Source: Brassica napus (taxonomy: Eukaryota; Streptophyta; Magnoliopsida; Brassicales; Brassicaceae). From it: a stretch of 64,000 nt of DNA. The notes under the pieces are model-generated. The model did not search any database, had not been told where the DNA came from, and worked only from the letters and a program-made list of their open reading frames with translations. The stretch spans positions 55,763,422 through 55,827,421 of the forward strand of contig NC_063445.1 in assembly GCF_020379485.1 (NCBI RefSeq). The letters run 5' to 3'. A program made the translations under genes and the position numbers. Shown here one piece after another: positions 35,571 to 54,041 of this stretch (position 1 is the first letter of the stretch; the number at the start of each line of letters is the position of its first letter).

Positions 35571-38271
35571 ATGGATATTTTTACAAGTAAAAAATGGTTC
35601 CGGCAACATTCGAACTGGTACTTGTGTTCCAAGCAAACTTTGCGGCCAAAATTCAGATCACCGTTGGTGATTCTATGTCCAAAAGAGGGTGGTTGTCGTC
35701 TCTACAACCCAGAAAAAGACATGGTTTACGTGGCGAAGAGTGACCTTTCGGGGTATCAATTCCTAGGAAACTCACGTAAGTGGTTTTTTGTGGTAGATTC
35801 TAGATCTGATCTCTACATCATAGACGCCACGAGAGGATGCTACTCCCACGTCTAGAGACACTCAAAGGTGGCACTCATGTGATTAAGCGTATAATGGCCC
35901 TCACGAACTAATGAATTTTTGGTCGAGAAAAATTCTACACGGCCAGTTTGAAATTGGTTCGACCGGAACTAAAAATAAAAATCGACCCGGTAAACTAATG
36001 TCTCGACGGAACTGTTTTGTGGTCGAGTCTTAAATATTTTGGTCGAATTTTTATTAAGCTGGACGAGATTTTCCGAGGGCAAAACAAGAACCAAAGAGAA
36101 GGAACATTTGGTTAAAATTTTATTTAAAATTATCGACCAACTTCTAAATAGTTTTTGAACTAAGTTATGCCCTCCACCAGCCTACTTGTGCACTTATTCA
36201 GTCACATGTTATGCACATGCCTACTTGCCTAGCATTTTCAGTAGGCACATGACAATCACAATCTACCTGCTTGCCTTGTTTCTTAGGTTGTCATGTGACA
36301 AACACATGAAAGGGCTAGAGTTTCTTTAGGGTAAGGACATGACAGCAACTTATGCTGAGAGTGCTGAAGCAGCTGGTGAGCTGTCCACACTCAGCCTAAC
36401 TTTGTCCTAAGTGAAATCATCACCTAAAGCAAGCTCACTTCATATTTAACCCTTTCCAGCTGTTTTCCACGTCCTGAAATCTAAAGAAAAATCAAGAGAG
36501 TTTCAGAAATTTTAAGAGAGAAAGAAGAAGAGAAAACTGAAAAAAATTCAGAAACTAAAATCAAGAGAAAAAGTATGGTTGAATCTTTGGTAAAGTTCAT
36601 CCATCAGTTGTTTCAGTCTGTTATTGAGAGTAAGATCAGACGGTGAGACTTTTAAATAAAACCCTAGACCTAGTTCAGTTCAGATCATGATCAAACCCAC
36701 ATCTCTCTTTCTGTTCAGTTCAGCCGCAAGCTAACCTTGGAGAAGAGGATCAGCTGAGACCATCTAGTCCTTTGGTTCGTCTTGGTAAGCTTTGGTCTCC
36801 TTGCTTCAGTCAATATCTGATCAGAACAGTTCATGGCTATCTTAGATCTTGGTCGGATCAGTTGTATAAGTTGTGATACAGTTCAGTTATTGTTTAGTTT
36901 CAGTTTGAATCCATCTCTTAAAACATTTAGCTAAGCTGTTATGGATTGATTGGAGTTAAACCGAACTGAACTCAATCTGATATTGTCCTGAACTGTTGTT
37001 AACTGAATATAACTGAGCTGATCTGATCTTGTATGAGAAGAACCGAGCTTGAACTGAATTGATTTAAGTTGTTTAACGTTAACCGAATTGTCGGATTGTT
37101 GATGTTCTGAACCGAACCTTGCTCTGTTTTGATCAGCTAAGGTGTGGAGCTTTACTAGTCCAACTCTGTCCATTCAGTCTCTTGGTAAGCCACAATCAAG
37201 TGAGTCGGATGAGTTGTTGAGTTAATCATAGTAACCGATCAGAACCTTGTCCACTCTTAGGTCCATTCAGCTTTGTTCAAGAGGAACTCAAGTCTTGTTC
37301 AAGCCAGTTTCAAGACTGTTTTTTAGGTGAGTCTAGACAGATGATGAGATAGATCATGAATGAGTACATGATTGAGTTTAATTGTAATATCTTAATTAGA
37401 TAGTAAAGTCTTTGAATCCTTTAAGAAGTGTATGGTGTTTACTTAGTGAAAACACTTACACTTAAAGAATAATGAAAATGTTATAGTGAGGTTAATACTA
37501 ATCTTAATACTTGTTCTCAAGTAATAATCTTAATTATGAAATAATCTTGATTTAATTAAGAATTAACTTTAGATTAATTAAGAATTAATTTGGGACTAAT
37601 TGAAAATTAATTATGATTAATTTTGGATTAATTTTGAAACAATCGTAGAAGTGAAAATCATGTGAAGTCTTATTATATTCACTATCTTTAAAGTCTCCGC
37701 ATTATCGTGACTTGGTCCTGTAAAGGGAACAAGGTCATAAAAACACGATGATGGGGTAGCTTCCTAGAGACCGTATACTGCATGACGATGCAGTGTATCA
37801 TAAGTTTCCTATGTCGATATATCAATAGCTGATGAGAAAGCAATGAATGCATATAAAGCCATCTCAGCTGGCTATAAAATCGTTGTTACAACACCAGGAG
37901 AGGTTTTGTTTCTCTATACCAGAGCTTACGAGCCAGCCTCTGGAAAGCCTAGGATCTTTCGTCTGTACAAAAGGGATGCTAAAGATCTAGACCCGGGAAC
38001 CTTAGATACATGGCTTGTTAAGGTGGATTCTATAGGTGATGAGGCTTTGTTTTTTGATTTGGGTATCACCGTTCCTGCTGACCACACCCTTGGTATTGAG
38101 CCAAGCTCCATCTACTTCACCCGTAACGACCGCCGTTTCAGTCACACGAAACGTTTAACTACATGCATCGACGTATGTGTGTACAAACTTGCAACAAAGA
38201 CCATCAAACGCGTCCCCGGTCTCTCCTCCAACTTCAGACTCAAGGTTGCCATGTGGTTTCTCCCCTCTTGA
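35571..38271 (+). pseudogene. F-box/DUF295 pseudogene interrupted by a 1.9-kb insertion
   Basis: The 5' piece (35600-35880) reads NWYLCSKQTLRPKFRSPL, then YNPEKDMVYVAKSDLSGYQF and KWFFVVDSRSDLYIIDA. It lacks the start and most of the F-box seen in the intact homologue. Coding homology breaks at about 35890. It resumes at about 37828 and runs openly to the stop at 38271 through RIFRLYKRDAKDLDPGTLD, DLGITVPADHTLGIEPSSIY and the family ending WFLPS. The middle third (roughly 330 bp in copy 23709-24625) is missing as well, so insertion came with a deletion. Confidence 0.85.
35891..37827. mobile_element. Insertion of unknown class in the F-box pseudogene
   Basis: These 1.94 kb have no counterpart in the sister copy. 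They contain noncoding sequence with repeated GAACTGAA/CCGAACTGAAC-type motifs and an AATTAATTAAG-rich patch (37540-37640). The last 130 bp (GTCCTGTAAAGGGAACAAGG onwards) look like a retroelement leader or LTR edge. Terminal repeats and a clean target duplication were not identified, so the class is open. Confidence 0.45.
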
Positions 38272-39097: not shown

Positions 39098-40463
39098 TTA
39101 TCCATTTATATAGTCCCACAACAAATAAAATAGAGATAGAACAAAAGAAACATAAAAAGTGTATATCAATAATGACTGAAATTTATATACTAAAAATTGT
39201 TGCCCTCGGTGATAAAAACTCTTGGTTCCGTCCCTGAGTTGGGCTGGCGTCATACCCGGTAACGTTTTCTTATACGCTGCAATCAAACAATATGAGTATC
39301 AAAATATTACATCTGTAATTATAGCATCTACATGTAACAACTGAAGATATAGAAATAAAATTCTAAGAAAAAGACTTGTATATAAAGTCCACGTCAATCA
39401 AAATAACCAATGAAAATATTTTAACTACTAACATACGACATGGTGAGTAGTCTAATCTTAACCTATGCTGAATATGTATTCCACTGATTCAAGAGTAACT
39501 ACATCATATAACCTATGCTGAATATGTGTACCACTGATTCAAGCGTATCTACATCATATAAGCGATAACTCTTACCTTAACTAACATTAAATTTGATTGA
39601 TACTAATCAAGGTAACATAATATCAATTTGATTCAAGTAGAAAAGCAAGGCATTACCGTGGCCAGTGGCTCCACGCGACCAGTAACGCACGTAACACTTG
39701 GCTAAGTGCACTTCACCCCAAGCAGTTATTCCACACAACGACTTCAGCTGTTTGTTCGCTTCCTTCAAACAGTCGTTACAGTCACTCGCACTAAGATCTC
39801 CAGTACACTGAGCCACAGCTTGCGCTCCCTCTTGATGTTAGGAGTTTTCAAGGCTCCTAAGACAAATGCTGTAGTTTAAATGATTGTCGAACCAGTTCTG
39901 AGAGATATCAAAGCACCGAGAATGCAAGTAATCACTTAATCTAAGTGCAACCAATGATTTAGATGGGGTTTTAAACTATGACTAATTAAAAGAAATAACT
40001 AAATGATACTTTCTTAACTATTGGAAAAGAGAACTCATGGATATAGGGATTAGACCTCGGGTGATCAAGTTTCGAACTAAAGATGGCAAACGATCAATCA
40101 ATCTATTAACCTTAAGCTTGGACACAATCCTAAACAAACTCTATGTCTAGATGAATGTTCATTTACTTAACACAATTCAAACATCAAATGTCTTTGGTTG
40201 AATAATATGAAAGCAATCATAACTAGCAAGTCCAATGGCTATCTTAGTACCTCTAACAACAAATGTCTTTGGCAAAGTATGCTAAAAGCTAAGAAGAGCT
40301 GTCTCGGGCATTTCCTCGAACACCTTTCGGGGGGAAATGCCTAAGGATCAACTACTGAGTGGCCAACTCAGAAGATGCATTATACTCACTCAACTAGCAA
40401 GGAAATATGAATGATCTACACTAAAACATCCTAGTTCTAACCTAATCACCCTCAATCTCCCTA

Positions 40464-43028
40464 CACTACAAGAAAACACGCCGAATTCCGACGGAGGTTC
40501 CGACGGATTAAAATTCGTCGGACGTTTGTGACGGATTTCCGACCAATTTCCGACGAAAACAAAAAATTTGAAGTCGTCGGAATTCCGTCGGCCATTTCCG
40601 ACGAATTTCAGAGGAAAAATGGCTCGTCGGAATATTCCGACGACTTTTCGACGACATTCTGATAAAACATATAACCGTTGTAGTCGTCGGAAATTCGTCG
40701 GAATATACCGACGAACTTCCGACGACATTCCGATTGAGAGATATAAATGTTACCGTCGTCGGTATTCCGTCGGAATTTTCTGACGAATTTCCGACGAACC
40801 ATGTTTCCGTCGGAAATCCCTCGCAAAATACCGACGACATAGCGACGACAAAGGGTTCCATTGAAGTTTGGAAATGTCCTCGGTAATTCGTCAGAATTTA
40901 CCGACGACATTCCGACGAACTAGACAAGTTCGTCGGAATGTCGTCGGTATATTCCGACGAATTACCGAGGACATGTGTTTCTAAAAAATTTCAAACATAA
41001 AAATCTATAAATTTAGATGCCAAAACTATGAAAATAACACATAATAAGTGTTTAGTATAGAATTAGATCACAACCGTTCAAATATAACAACTCATTAAAA
41101 TATTTATGTATGCATATCATTGTTTTCATAACATCTCATCTTAACACTCATATACTTATACAATCATATTCATCTAATCTTACACTACAAAAAATGTTGT
41201 TGTGTAAAATCGTGTTATAAAAACATTTTTATTGTTAAATCTTTATGCAAATACTATATATATTATCAAAGATTTGGATTTTGCATTTAGAAACTTGTAA
41301 TCAACCCCTAAACACTAAGTCGTCGGAATTCGGTCAGAAAAAGTCGTCAGTATTCCGTCGGAATCTACTGACGGACACCAATTCCGTCGGAATTTCAATT
41401 TACCCGGGAAAACCAAACCGCGTGAAAATTTTCGCGAACCGCCAATTGGTATATATTTAATTATCCCGACGGAATACTGACGAACCTGTGTCCGTCGGAA
41501 ACATTAAATATAATTACCCTTCTTCTTCCTTCTTCGTTATTTCCGCCTCCGCCTCTCTCTCAATCCTCTCCGCGATTTCTCTCCCTTTCACGGCGATTCC
41601 GACCATTCTCGAGCTCCTATCACCGGCGAATCCTCTTCTCACCCTCATATCTCTTCCCCAAACCCCAAATCATGTAAGAATCATCCCAACCTTGTTTTAT
41701 CTCATTTTTTTAGGGTTTTGGAAGTTAGATCTCGGATTTTAGGTTGTTTGATTGAAAATTTTAGGATTGAATGGATAGTTTAGGATATATAAGTTAGGAT
41801 TGTTGTTTGGATTGTTGTTTTAGTTTTTCTTGGAATTATTTTGTGTGTTTGTTAAAATTCAAAACGTTTTACTATTTCTAAAACGTTTTTTTTATTTTTA
41901 AAAACGTTTTTCAAGTTTCCAGTAATAAACTATGTATAATAAAATGTTTTTTAAAAATTTTAAAAATATTTAACAACATTTTTCTATATTTATAAAAATT
42001 TTATAATTTTGTATACATATATATATATATATATATATAAATCATGTATAATAAAAAATTTTAAAATTTTTATAATTTTTTATAAGTTTCCTGTAATAAA
42101 CTATGTATAAAAAAGGTTTAATAGTTTTTTTTAAAACGTTTATAAAACCTTTTGTAAATATATAAATGAAAACATTAAAAATAGAAATGATTTGAAAAGA
42201 TTTTTGATGTATTAATTTTTTTTTTAGGTCTGAGGATGTACCCCGCCCCGCAGCCCGTCTTCGACGTAGTTTGGTGAGCAGTTCCCGTGCATCGGGATCG
42301 TCTCACGAACAAAACTCGGTTCCCGCATATATTCCCGCTCCAGAAGAAGTTCAGCGCCGAGATAATGCAGAAGCTAGATCGTTTGATGTCTTCGAGTTCT
42401 TAGTTTTTTCTGCTTTTTAAAACTTTCTGAATGTTTTTTTTCTATTTCGGTTTGTATGAATTTTTAACTTTCTGAATGTTTTTTTTTCTATTTCGGTTTG
42501 TATGAATTTAAATTCTATAATATTATTAGTTTTAAATTTCAGATTTTATTTATTTATTAATTAACTTTTAATATAAAAAAATATATAAAAATGCAAAATT
42601 AATTCGTATTTAAAATTGATATATTCCGACGAATTGAGGGCGTCGGAATATACCGACGAACGAAGTCGTCGGAAAATACCGACGGAGAAGGTTCCTCGGA
42701 AAATTCCGACGAACCATAGTCCGTCGGTATTTTCCGAGGACTCGGTTCGTCGGTATAGTCCGAGGAATGTGCTCCTTCGGTATATAGTTTTTCCGATGAA
42801 CTCTGGTCTCGTGTGTCCGCATCGGAATATCGTCGGAAGTTCGTCAGAATGACGTTTCTCGGTATTCGTCAGAAAGTCGTCGGAAGGTCTGACGAAATTC
42901 CGACGAATCTTTTTTTTCCGACGAAATTATACCGACGGACTGGTTCGTCAGAAATTCGTCAAGATCGGTCTATTCCGACGAATTTCTGACGATTTCGGCC
43001 ATCAGAATCCCCCTGTTTTCTTGTAGTG
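40464..43028. mobile_element. Non-autonomous CACTA (En/Spm) transposon, 2565 bp
   Basis: It begins CACTACAAGAAAAC and ends GTTTTCTTGTAGTG, with 3-bp target duplication CTA (40461-40463 and 43029-43031). Both subterminal regions (40484-40975 and 42625-43010) are dense in TTCCGACGAA/TTCGTCGG motifs, the presumed transposase-binding repeats. The interior keeps a GC-richer leader (41520-41680) and a short stretch reading NSVPAYIPAPEEVQRRDN (about 42311-42365) that seems to be the start of the parent ORF. Transposase is absent. Open frames within the repeats are by-products of the motif. Confidence 0.93.
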
Positions 43029-43337
43029 CTATCCCATGAATTCAAAAGGTGATTACTCACTAATCTCCATGATTCCTCTTAAACCCATGTTGGATTTCAG
43101 ATTAATCATGTAGAGAAACACAGGAAATAGATAAGAACACAGAATTCTCAATAATAAACTGATCAATTGATTCAAAGAGATGACTTTCCAAAGGTTTTTG
43201 GTGGTTTTTCTAAGAACAAAGATGATCCCCCTCTTGGTGGCTCCTAGAGTATTAAAACATAGGTTTAGAAAATAAAAACGTGCATAATGAAATGACCAAA
43301 AGGCCCTTGAGAAATCACAAATTCGAGTAGAAATAAA

Positions 43338-43665
43338 ACGCGCAGCGACCTCAGCCCGTCGCTCCGACAAGTCGCTCCAGGCTTCGGGAGCGACCTCGCT
43401 GTGTCGCTGCGAGAGGTCGCTCCGGGCTCGTTCTCGCGTCTCCGGGTGATGAAACCGCGAGCGACTTCTCCCTGTCGCTCCCATAACGTCGCTCCCAGCT
43501 GGAGCGACCTCGCTGTGTCGCTCCGAGAGGTCGCTCCGGGCTTGTTCTCGCATCTCCGAGTGATGAAACCGCGAGCGACTTCTCCCTGTCGCTCTGGTTA
43601 GGTCGCTCCAGTAGGGTGATCAGAGCGACCTCGCTGTGTCGCTCCGGACTGGTCGCTCCCATGCC
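43338..43665. repeat. GC-rich imperfect repeats inside the LTR
   Basis: Variants of GCGACCTCGCTGTGTCGCT and GAGCGACTTCTCCCTGTCGC recur about ten times. There is also a larger period of roughly 125 bp (GTCGCTCCGGGC, TTCTCGC, CTCCG, GTGATGAAACCGCGAGCGAC occurs twice). The region contrasts sharply in base composition with its surroundings. Confidence 0.8.
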
Positions 43666-44444
43666 TTGCTCGCCCAATGACCATTCTAAACACTCCTTTT
43701 TGAGCTCCAAATGCCTCCAAGTGTCTCCAAGAACTCCATGTGGTACTCCAATACCTGATAAGGACTCATGTATGCAAAATGCAACCTAAACATGGCTAAA
43801 TCCTAATCTATATGATCAAAATACACATGGATGAATGGATAAAACAATAGAAATATGCAAGATATCACCTCTCCTATTGAAGCTCTGTAAGGTACGCTAT
43901 CGGCGTCCACTACGAAACTCACCATCTTACTGGTCTTAGTCAACTCGTCCGGGCTATACCCCCACGGTGTCCCGCATATCCTAGCCAGCAACGTCTTATT
44001 CGCCACGCCTAGGAACTTAGTGTTCTTATACTCCACGAAACAACCTTCAAGCAGCAACGCGCCGCCGGACGCGCCCCCGCAGAGACTTTGTAGTATGCGA
44101 GCAGCTTGCGCGACGCATCTAGCGCAATCATCGGAACGTGTGGAGAGGTCGCTGCGGCAGTGGTGCATCCCGTGGACGGTTTTGCCGTAGGTTCCGACAG
44201 TGAAATGGTCGTATGTAAAGATATTAGCTGAGTTTACGAGCGAGGTGAGTAGCGAGTTGACATTTGAGTCGTAAGATGATCCGGGAAGGTACTTGGAGCA
44301 AAAAGACGATCCTCGAAAGTAGTTTGGTTGCGTACAATGGTGGTAGTAAAGAAAAGTATTGTCGGAAGGAGATGAGAAGTTTCTGATAAGAGATGCGGCT
44401 GCGATGACGACGGAGATGGCAATAATTGTGTTTATCGGTGACAT

Positions 44445-47083: not shown

Positions 47084-47168
47084 GATCACTTTCGCCGATG
47101 TGTTACCTTTTGGCCTTTGGGTGTATATGTCTGTATCACAAAATATGAGTATGTATGCATGAGAAAGG

Positions 47169-47790
47169 GGCAGGCAATTCTATATGCTCAGTGCGTTGAG
47201 ACATATATCCTTAGTGAAGTCTTTGCAATACGTTATTCGGTTACATAAAATATATGAAAAATTGATAAAGTGGCAGGCATCTCTTTATGTTCGGTGCGTT
47301 AATATATGCATATACATATATCATTATGAAGCATTTGCAATACGTTATTAGGTTATAATATATAAAATATTCTTAGCATTCGTACCAGAAAAGGTTATAC
47401 AAATATATGAAAACATGATAAAGTGGCAGGCATCTCTTTATGCTCGGTGAATTAATATATGCATTAGACATTTATCATTATGAAGCATTTGCATAACTTT
47501 ATATGGCTATATAAAATATAACATTCGTACCAAGGAAAGGTTATAAAAACATATGAAAACTTGATAAAAGTGGCAGGCATCTCTTTATGCTCAGTGTGTA
47601 TAATATATGTCAATGAAAGAAACATTAGCAATCGATTATTAATTCATAAAATATATGAAACACATAAATACATCATTATATAACTGGTAGGCAGCTCCTT
47701 ATGCTCGGTATATCATTATGAAAACATTCGCAACAGAGTTTTAGATTGTATAAAATATATGGAAACTGCTTAATTAATCTAACTAGTTGG
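47169..47790. repeat. Imperfect tandem array upstream of DUF26 gene B
   Basis: Five units begin GGCAGGCA(t/a)(c/t)TC or similar at 47169, 47272, 47425, 47572 and 47686, with lengths of 103-153 bp. Each carries ctttatgctcggtg, catttgcaa and ataaaatatatgaaa. One related unit lies upstream of gene C at about 54190-54300. Confidence 0.75.
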
Positions 47791-48303: not shown

Positions 48304-48831
48304 CTATATCATGAGGAATCGAAATAATTTAGTAACAATAAAGATCAACTTGCTGAAGTAAAAAGGTTTAACAGGTGGGTGACTAATGGAGGAAGAATCA
48401 TTTCTGAAGATGGACATTGTTTGACCAAAATTACAGGAACAAAGTTGTGATTGCATTAACTTGATTTGGTAATTTTGTAGTATGCGAGCAGCTTGCGCGA
48501 CGCATCTAGCGCAATCATCGGAACGTGTGGAGAGGTCGCTGCGGCAGTGGTGCATCCCGTGGACGGTTTTGCCGTAGGTTCCGACAGTGAAATGGTTGTA
48601 TGTAAAGACATTAGCTGAGTTTACGATCGAGGTGAGTAGCGTGTTGACATTTGAGTCGTAAGATGATCCGGGAAGGTACTTGGAGAAAAAAGACGATCCT
48701 CGAAAGTAGTTTGGTTGCGTACAATGGTGGTAGTAAAGAAAAGTATTGTCGGAAGGAGATGAGAAGTTTCTGATAAGAGATGCGGCTGCGATGACGACGG
48801 AGATGGCAATAATTGTGTTTATGGGTGACAT
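48304..48831 (-). pseudogene. Truncated DUF26 gene fused to cluster flank
   Basis: From ATG 48831 to about 48474 the frame is nearly identical to gene A (MSPINTIIAISVV to QAARILQ). It then switches to sequence that elsewhere in the cluster is noncoding flank (48304-48473, like 57040-57180), giving a 175-codon chimera with an unrelated tail that ends LFRFLMI. Domain 1 is cut just after CARC and domain 2 and exon 2 are lost. A deletion joining two cluster units explains this. Confidence 0.85.
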
Positions 48832-51895: not shown

Positions 51896-54041
51896 TCATT
51901 CGAGCAAAAAAACACACATAAAAAATAATATACCCAAAACCAAAACATAAAAAAAGTATGACCATAATGATTTAATTAGATCAAATAAACTTGTTGTCCT
52001 CATATATAACAAATTCCTTTGGGCCGCCACGTGCTTAGCCCGAATCCCTTTCTTGAACTCTACATTGAAACCATACAATTATCAAATATACGTCTATACT
52101 TAAATTATAGGATAATAGATTTTGATAACAAAAAAAAAAATATGATAAATAGCACATAAAGAATCTTTTATTTTAAGATAACACTAATTAAAAGGTAAAA
52201 TGACTAAGTTATTCTAAACTCTAAAGCCTTATCTTAGTTTCACCTCTTAAATATTAAACCTTAAATCCTAATAACTAAACGTACTCAAATATAAAATAAA
52301 ACTAGATATTAACCCGCACATCCGTGCGGATATATTTATATTTTAAAATTAATATTTAAAATATAAAATATGTTATAAAGATATATATCTAATATCAATT
52401 TTATGTATATAATTTTTATTTTAAAAATTTATATTTGTTGAAATTTGTTTGATGATATTGTACAAATCATATATTAATGAAGTATTTTTGTTTATTTATT
52501 TAAAATGCAAGATCAATATTAATAGTTTAATTTTAAACATTAGTTTTATATGAATTAATAAAAAAAATTATTAGCTTCTTTGTTTAGAAATTTTTATTCT
52601 CGAAATATTTTTATGTGAATAAATTAAATTATTTTTGTTATATTTTAAAATATTATTTTATTTAATATTTTATATTTCAGTTTAATGTTTTTATTTTTAC
52701 TAAACATATCAACATAAAATGTTACAACCAATAAAATATTTTTTATTTTGTTTTATTTAAAAATTTTATTTGATAATTTAAAAAGAATTGGACTATACTT
52801 TTTAATTTTAAAATTAGTTACTGAAATATATAAAATATGGTCTATATTAAATATGAGAAGCAGTCAAATGATGATTACCTGATGACAATATATTTATATT
52901 TTTTAAAAATGTTATTGTTTAGATATATATTGTTTTTGTTAGGAGAATATCATATATGAGTAATTTTAGGATGTTTAGTTAAATTTCTAATGAATGGTCT
53001 AACATAGACTTGTGTATGATAGATAAAAAATAGGACTTTATTTTAATAGAGTAGATAAAAAAATTAGTTTTTCAACTGATGCTATTTTTGGGAACGGATT
53101 ATTTTGGTGATATTCTAGACTACTTCTCTAAATTATATACATCAAAACAAAATAACGCATGACAGAAAATGTTCAAAAATATAGTAATTAATATGCTTTC
53201 TACATTAAAAAAAATATGCTTCTACATATATGACCTTACTTTATTTTTAGTTCTCCAGAATATATATCGAATCTTTAAAAAAGGCAACGGAGCAGAAAAG
53301 GATGTAACTACCTTCACCGACGGCTCCATGCGACGAGTAACCAACGTAGCACTTGGCTAAGTAGACGTCACCCCAAGTGCTTGTTCCGCAAAACGGTTGA
53401 AGTTTCAGCCGTTGGATCGCTTCCATCAAACAGTCTTGACAATCGGTTGCACTAAGATCACCGGTGCACTGCGCTACAGCTTGCGCTTCCCCTGACCTCT
53501 CCACTCTGTATGACGTACCACTATTTGCAACCACTTTATCAACCAACGCATTAGCCTGAGCCAACTCGTCCGACTTATATTTATACCCAGCCGGTGTCCC
53601 GCAACTCATAACCATGGCCGTCTTATCGGCCACGCCAAAGAACACAACGTTGTCGTACTTCACTAAACAGCCTTCGAGCTGCAATGCGCAGCCGGTCTCG
53701 CCTACGCTGTTACTTTGGAGCAGGCGAACAGCTTGAGTTACACAACTTACGCACTCATCGGAGGTTAGATCACCCCGGCACTGGTGCAGTCCGTAGTTTC
53801 CGTTGACAGTGAGATTGTTGTATGTGTAGATAGAAGCTGAGTTTACGAACATGCTGAGTAGCGAGTTGACATTTGGCTTGATAGCCGCTCCGGTGAAGTA
53901 CTTTGGTGCAGAGCATTGGTGGTAGTAGACTAATGGATTCACAGAGGGATATAGCCAGTTTGTGAGAAAATATACGGCTACGATGGCGACAGCGATCGAG
54001 ATAACTGGTTTTATCAATGACATCTCTTTCGGCGATGCCAT
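51896..54041 (-). CDS. DUF26 cysteine-rich repeat protein C with C-terminal membrane segment
   Basis: Exon 1 54041-53312 and exon 2 52059-51896 join to 297 aa. The start MASPKEMSLIKPV is followed by a hydrophobic stretch (VISIAVAIVAVYFL). Domain 1 carries CRGDLTSDECVSC and domain 2 CTGDLSATDCQDC. Exon 2 encodes FKKGIRAKHVAAQRN then a membrane segment (YFFYVLVLGILFFMCVFLL). The 1252-bp intron holds a Helitron of 754 bp (52302-53055); without it the intron would be close in size to the 396 bp of gene B. A second in-frame ATG seven codons in corresponds to the start of gene B. Membership and likely location are as for gene B. Confidence 0.85.
52302..53055 (-). mobile_element. Helitron, 754 bp, in the intron of DUF26 gene C
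   Basis: On the minus strand it starts TCTACTCTATTAAAATAAAG at 53055 and ends, after hairpin CCGCAC-ggat-GTGCGG, with CTAG at 52305-52302. The flanks are A (52301) and T (53056). It is non-coding and lies in the same orientation as the gene. Confidence 0.8.

What the first reader, a model, noticed from the sequence alone, without database searches (positions are those of the whole stretch)
39828..43872. An LTR insertion in a DUF26 coding exon whose target duplication builds in-frame splice sites
The solo LTR sits between SIGE and GAQAVAQ of gene A. On the gene's strand the left copy of the 5-bp duplication plus the LTR end reads GAG|GTGATATC, a GT donor at 43868/43867. The right copy reads ATCAAGAG|GGAGCG, an AG acceptor ending at 39829. 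Removing 43868-39829 restores the reading frame exactly as in paralogues B and C. The rest of the gene has no stop or frameshift. This could be a case of a transposon becoming an intron of about 4.0 kb.
Basis: partly seen in the sequence, partly recalled or inferred. Interest (0 to 1): 0.75.

Follow-up and report, generated by a model that had tools for sequence, protein, structure and literature searches.

The report
Transposon-split plant gene, splicing unproven
A mobile DNA element, itself later hit by a second one, sits inside an exon of a cabbage-family DUF26 gene, and although its duplicated target site happens to spell exact splice signals, the right-hand signal is so poor that a broken gene is likelier than a new intron.

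Summary
On the minus strand a 4035-bp TG...CA element (39833-43867) with a perfect 5-bp duplication (AGAGG on the gene strand) interrupts a coding exon of a two-domain DUF26 gene. GT at 43868/43867 and AG at 39830/39829 would splice back exactly to the pre-insertion frame.

Exact restoration follows from the duplication; 56 of 2157 5-mers in three local genes would give it. The donor is ordinary. The acceptor ATCAAGAG|GG is poor: 166th of 299 AGs (recalled matrix). Of 216 AGs in the element and duplication, it alone leaves the frame open. The one database protein nearly identical to A, of unnamed source, reads into the LTR; no spliced form was seen, though 90% clustering could hide one. Relatives lack the insertion, and two protein models lack part of the second DUF26 domain.

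LTR elements acting as new introns in Brassica rapa exons are in print (PMC9241368). Most likely the gene is disrupted; exact splicing stays possible and testable with RNA-seq.

The parts
43869..44444 (-). Gene A exon 1 part before the insertion: hydrophobic start (by eye) and first DUF26 domain; ends ...PYRASIGE
   Evidence: (PF01657)
43868..43872 (-). Copy of the 5-bp target duplication (AGAGG on gene strand); its last G with the LTR's T makes the putative GT donor at 43868/43867
   Evidence: donor score 6.52, rank 11 of 294 GTs with a recalled matrix
39833..43867 (.). Inserted TG...CA element, 4035 bp; solo-LTR-like (1467 bp) once the nested transposon and its CTA duplication are discounted; its left and right parts share no direct repeat
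40464..43028 (.). Nested CACTA-type DNA transposon (2565 bp), termini CACTACAAGAAAACA, 3-bp TSD CTA, repeats of the TCGTCGGAA...CCGACGA kind
43803..43868 (-). Read-through extension of exon 1 into the LTR: 21 residues VISCIFLLFYPFIHVYFDHID, then TAG
   Evidence: same tail in database protein P0004
39828..39832 (-). Other copy of the target duplication; holds the putative AG acceptor (GAG) ending at 39829, with a neighbouring AAG ending at 39831
39657..39828 (-). Remainder of the interrupted exon ('exon 2' if the element is an intron): second DUF26 domain, GAQAVAQ...GATGH
39277..39656 (-). Ordinary downstream intron of gene A (donor ACG|GTAATG, acceptor TTGATTGCAG|CG)
39098..39276 (-). Last exon of gene A: C-terminal tail AYKKTLPGM...DYING, stop TAA
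   Evidence: same tail, with 4 differences, in B. carinata P0001
46374..47083 (-). Paralogue B, first exon, uninterrupted at the homologous site
53311..54023 (-). Paralogue C, first exon, uninterrupted at the homologous site
48472..48831 (-). A-prime: truncated recent copy of gene A's 5' part; the matched stretch (which starts a little before the ATG) is 377 of 386 bases identical and ends before the insertion site

Best explanation
A solo-LTR-like element inserted into the first coding exon of a two-domain DUF26 (cysteine-rich repeat secretory / PDLP-like) gene and later received a CACTA transposon. Shown from sequence: the insertion, both duplications, the intact flanking frame, the empty site in relatives (at protein level). 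Inferred: the usual transcript runs into the element and its frame stops at codon 214, giving at most a one-domain protein with a 21-residue LTR tail, or an unstable RNA; the GT...AG built by the target duplication is a coincidence of an AGG-ending target site, used rarely or not at all. Gene A is then effectively a disrupted member of a tandem family whose function B and C may cover.
For: Acceptor is weak: -3 G, little T tract, score -0.62, rank 166 of 299 AGs, against 8.98 (A's own intron), 7.66 (B) and 5.27 (C) (matrix recalled). In the 21 Arabidopsis NAGNAG introns of PMC2375911 Table 1 that hold a GAG, 0 of 187 ESTs used it (table, my count, sum; all 21 compete with CAG or TAG, so this does not rank GAG against AAG). 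Better-scoring acceptors lie just upstream in the element (39898, 39869, 39857), and joined to the donor all three give a stop. The one nearly identical protein found, P0004 (11 clustered members, source lgn), reads into the LTR with the same tail. Relatives may tolerate damage: B. carinata P0003 lacks part of the second domain and continues in another frame; Eruca P0002 has one residue in place of SASDCNDCLK and no homologous last exon (gene models, not checked on DNA). A versus A-prime: 5 nonsynonymous, 1 synonymous change in 348 bases.
Against: No transcript data were available. P0004 may come from DNA reads, where read-through proves nothing. The donor is good (rank 11 of 294; U1 pairing -6.8 kcal/mol, best of four donors compared). 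The frame is intact, and A shows as many private residues as B. carinata P0001 (7 and 7 of 25 differences, 11 unresolved), so no excess of change. The 5:1 ratio does not exclude selection (P = 0.10 at omega 0.3) and A-prime may itself be a dead copy. Precedents show that LTR elements can be spliced from exons.
Confidence: 0.68

Rival explanations
1. One reading: the element is removed exactly at 43868-39829 as a 4040-base intron, and gene A stays functional as a 308-aa protein.
For: GT and AG are present and splice to the ancestral frame; 39829 is the only one of 216 AGs in the element and duplication that leaves it open; donor comparable to the gene's own; intact 308-aa frame of the same length as the uninterrupted B. 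carinata protein P0001, 92% identical; LTR/Copia elements are reported to act as new introns in exons of BrFLOR1.2 and BraA07g030180.3.1C (PMC9241368), and one exonic ONSEN insertion was intronized (PMC12112155).
Against: Acceptor weak, with AAG two bases before it scoring nearly the same (-0.96 against -0.62); no spliced A-like protein in 3 database searches, though clustering with P0001 could hide it; intact frame expected anyway for a young insertion (about 0.7 nonsense mutations per million years over 927 bases at a recalled rate of 1.5e-8; indels not counted).
Confidence: 0.13
2. Inexact splicing: the donor at 43868 is joined to another acceptor. One in-frame choice is the exonic GCTCAG ending at 39808, 30 bases after a CTAAC branch-point-like motif at the LTR end; it would drop only GAQAVAQ and keep the second domain's cysteines. 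Other choices, in the element, give a stop.
For: The 39808 junction is open in frame; CAG wins over AAG and TAG in the NAGNAG introns of PMC2375911 Table 1; CTAAC at 39841-39837 read; 215 of 216 AGs in the element and duplication give a stop if used.
Against: 39808 scores -0.47, rank 157 of 299; four AGs lie between the motif and 39808; no transcript evidence. The branch-point role is recalled and inferred.
Confidence: 0.14
3. Gene A is not transcribed at all: DNA methylation of the LTR and CACTA silences it, so no splicing question arises.
For: PMC9241368 reports lower average expression of genes holding TE insertions; nested transposons are a likely methylation target (general knowledge).
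Against: The insertion lies 576 bases into the coding sequence, away from the promoter; not testable here.
Confidence: 0.05

Closest known systems
LTR/Copia insertions acting as new introns in Brassica rapa (BrFLOR1.2 exon 1, BraA07g030180.3.1C exon 3; PMC9241368, passages and section 8 seen)
   Same: LTR element in a coding exon of a Brassica gene, said to act as an intron
   Different: Those are 4.7-4.8 kb Copia elements with population data for one and expression data for the other; here a solo-LTR-like unit with a nested CACTA, splice sites from the target duplication, and no transcript evidence. Whether theirs use the target duplication I did not see
Intronized exonic ONSEN insertion in Arabidopsis (PMC12112155, abstract and sections 7 and 15 seen)
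   Same: LTR retrotransposon in an exon removed by splicing; for seven insertions transcripts started or ended in the element
   Different: Full-length element with long-read cDNA evidence; splice sites suggested to lie in the LTRs; the paper names the gene as AT5G32415 in one section and AT4G34215 in another
Introners (PMC9860276, passages seen)
   Same: Some families take one or both splice sites from the target duplication or insertion site, and in most families splicing leaves mRNA length unchanged
   Different: Introners are multi-copy families and that study found none in land plants; this is one LTR-like insertion without shown splicing

Membership tests
LTR retrotransposon (solo LTR) | Ends TG...CA with a 4-6 bp target duplication | tested here: met
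   TGATGTTAGG...GATATCA, CCTCT on both sides
LTR retrotransposon (solo LTR) | Single terminal repeat, no internal region between two repeats | tested here: met
   Left and right parts share no direct repeat; one 18-base inverted match at E 0.78
LTR retrotransposon (solo LTR) | Same sequence occurs as the LTR of a complete element elsewhere in the genome | not tested
   The genome search did not complete; no other full copy in the window
CACTA DNA transposon | CACTA termini in inverted orientation with 3-bp target duplication | tested here: met
   40464-43028, CTA/CTA
CACTA DNA transposon | En/Spm-type transposase | not tested
   No transposase search was made on the 2565-bp insert
Transposon-derived intron | GT...AG boundaries whose removal restores the ancestral mRNA | tested here: met
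Transposon-derived intron | Acceptor of normal strength (T tract, NAG other than GAG) | tested here: not met
   Score -0.62, rank 166 of 299; GAG triplet (recalled matrix). A weak site lowers the odds, it does not exclude splicing
Transposon-derived intron | Spliced transcript observed | not testable with these tools
   No RNA data; protein searches found none
Introner | Many near-identical copies acting as introns in the genome | not tested
DUF26 secretory protein (PF01657) | Two Stress-antifung stretches above the Pfam cut-off | tested here: met
   Joined A 92.5 bits, two stretches; read-through form 61.1 bits, one stretch; cut-off 25

The most novel reading that the evidence does not exclude
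A solo LTR, with its acceptor and half its donor supplied by a 5-bp target duplication, has become an exactly spliced 4.0-kb intron of a working DUF26 gene and has even absorbed a second transposon without loss of function: a land-plant counterpart of the Introner route, from an LTR element.
Probability: 0.1. Interest if true: 0.6.

Novelty: new member of a known kind. Interest (0 to 1): 0.3.

Why it matters
If exact splicing occurs, it would be a clean snapshot of intron birth by target-site duplication in a land plant, a group where one wide survey found no Introners (PMC9860276, passages), with the empty site known in a sister species. If not, it is a useful caution: GT...AG in a target duplication restores the frame by construction, about 2.6% of possible sites here would do so, and the real test is acceptor strength and transcripts.

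Tried and rejected
Considered and rejected: that exact frame restoration is itself evidence of selection; it follows from the duplicated target site (56 of 2157 possible 5-mers). That the absence of stops shows function: expected nonsense mutations are about 0.7 per million years over 927 bases at a recalled rate, and the age is unknown because a solo LTR has no partner to compare. That the whole 4.0 kb is LTR: 2565 bp is a nested CACTA. That A is clearly decaying: residues private to A and to P0001 are 7 and 7, and 5:1 nonsynonymous to synonymous against A-prime is not significant.

Led nowhere: the genome search on the window's own assembly did not complete four times. A protein search with the 116-aa second half of A gave no hit among 9 candidates; a 127-aa piece spanning the junction gave 4 hits, none a spliced copy of A. 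No tRNA in the window. Poly(A) motifs: 5 AATAAA on the gene strand of the element, all inside the CACTA, not conclusive. The splice matrices and the U1 sequence are from memory, rounded; under them GAG at 39829 (-0.62) and AAG at 39831 (-0.96) are nearly tied, so I do not claim that AAG must win. For the alignment I used 5 of the 69 listed database proteins as comparison rows (P0001, P0002, P0003, P0005, P0006), plus P0004 and A-prime, and cut P0003, P0005 and P0002 where their models leave the shared frame or tail; the private-residue count uses P0002, P0003 and P0005 as outgroup rows and leaves P0006 out. Rfam, structure prediction and transposase searches were not run.
Full report
Setting. 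The window is plant DNA. Paralogue B's first exon is 98.3% identical (232 of 236 residues) to a Brassica rapa subsp. trilocularis protein (P0014), and gene A's best full-length match is B. carinata P0001, so the species is probably a Brassica with an A genome (inference). Gene A lies on the minus strand in a tandem set with B and C. The joined product carries two Stress-antifung/DUF26 stretches, the read-through product one. Named relatives include cysteine-rich repeat secretory protein 12 and plasmodesmata-located protein 6.

What is in the sequence. The element spans 39833-43867, begins TGATGTTAGG and ends GATATCA on the plus strand, and has CCTCT on both sides. Inside it, 40464-43028 is a CACTA-type element with CACTACAAGAAAACA termini and CTA on both sides and many TCGTCGG/CCGACGA repeats. 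The remaining 1467 bp has no second copy of itself in the element, so it behaves as a single LTR; its two parts share only one 18-base inverted match at E 0.78. That it is an LTR rests on its ends and 5-bp duplication; complete elements could not be looked for outside the window.

The splice reading. On the gene strand, GAG|GTGATATC and ATCAAGAG|GGAGCG define an intron 43868-39829. Joining the flanks gives an open frame through 39657, and with the downstream intron 39656-39277 and exon 39276-39098 a 308-aa protein. B. carinata P0001 is also 308 aa, 92% identical over its whole length, and reads RAWIGEGAQAVAQ where A reads RASIGE/GAQAVAQ. P0003 reads RAWIREGSQAVAQ, and the P0005 model reads through the same place in another frame (ELGYERDRKLW against A's ELQ*ERERKLW). 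These are empty sites, seen at protein level, and place the insertion in A's lineage.

How surprising. For a TG...CA element, exact restoration needs a target of the form NNAGG, NAGGT, AGGTN or GGTNN. In the A, B and C coding sequence 56 of 2157 positions qualify. PMC9241368 reports 165-282 genes with polymorphic TE insertions in coding regions in each of 19 B. rapa genomes (passage), so a few such coincidences per genome are expected (inference).

Splice strength. With rounded Arabidopsis matrices from memory, the donor scores 6.52 (rank 11 of 294 GTs between 44560 and 39050); the gene's own donor scores 6.65, B's 8.35 and C's 7.64. U1 pairing is -6.8 kcal/mol against -5.3, -6.5 and -6.3. The acceptor scores -0.62 (rank 166 of 299), against 8.98, 7.66 and 5.27 for the inferred acceptors of the A, B and C introns. 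In PMC2375911 Table 1, 21 of 36 introns hold a GAG next to CAG or TAG, and 0 of 187 ESTs used the GAG (sum). Acceptors at 39898, 39869 and 39857 score 6.83, 6.06 and 4.29; joined to the donor, all three give a stop. The exon-2 frame carries TAA at 39840-39838, nine bases before the junction. Over the whole element and its 3' duplication, of 216 AGs joined to the donor only 39829 leaves the frame open. Of 14 AGs examined between 39868 and 39729, five are open: 39829, and the exonic 39808, 39763, 39748 and 39742.

Database evidence. Of 68 proteins found with the joined A, P0004 is 99% identical over 62% of A and ends VISCIFLLFYPFIHVYFDHID, the LTR read-through tail, followed in the window by TAG. 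It comes from an unnamed source (lgn) on a 1447-base contig, and differs from A by one small in-frame change (FTSFGTYG for FTVGTYG). Whether it is RNA or DNA is unknown. No spliced A was seen; since the database is clustered at 90%, one could be hidden under P0001.

Constraint. A and its truncated copy A-prime differ at 6 of 116 codons, 5 nonsynonymous and 1 synonymous. P(N >= 5 of 6) is 0.56 at omega 1 and 0.10 at omega 0.3, so this leans to weak constraint without proving it. A and P0001 differ at 25 residues: 7 are private to A (C49, I75, D79, K140, P165, S189, K218), 7 to P0001, 11 unresolved with the three outgroup rows used. So A is no faster than P0001. P0003 (B. carinata) lacks a piece of the second domain and ends in another frame; Eruca P0002 has one residue in place of SASDCNDCLK and no homologous last exon. 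Either may be an annotation fault, but together they suggest that the second half of this gene can be lost.

Conclusion. I put exact splicing as the main product at 0.13, inexact splicing at 0.14, silence at 0.05 and plain disruption at 0.68; the check did not change these odds. Seven searches of the paper library were made, six on intron gain, exonic insertions or splice sites and one on DUF26 genes. None was aimed at this very gene by name, none of the listed titles is about it, and four papers were opened in part.

Noticed in passing
48472-48831 (minus strand): A-prime, a recent truncated copy of gene A (matched stretch 377 of 386 bases identical); at its break it runs into sequence that by eye resembles the upstream region of gene A, as after unequal exchange.
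   Followed up: partly
47145-47725: Dispersed imperfect repeats (GGCAGGCATCTCTTTATGCTCGGTG motif, 5 copies) upstream of paralogue B, possibly promoter repeats.
   Followed up: no
43343-43646: Short GC-rich repeats (GAGCGACCTCGCTGTGTCGCTCCG, 6 copies) inside the LTR-like part.
   Followed up: no
37804-38271 (plus strand): Open frame of 155 codons next to gene A, function not examined.
   Followed up: no
39459-39558: A 50-base unit in two tandem copies (92% identical) inside the ordinary downstream intron of gene A.
   Followed up: no
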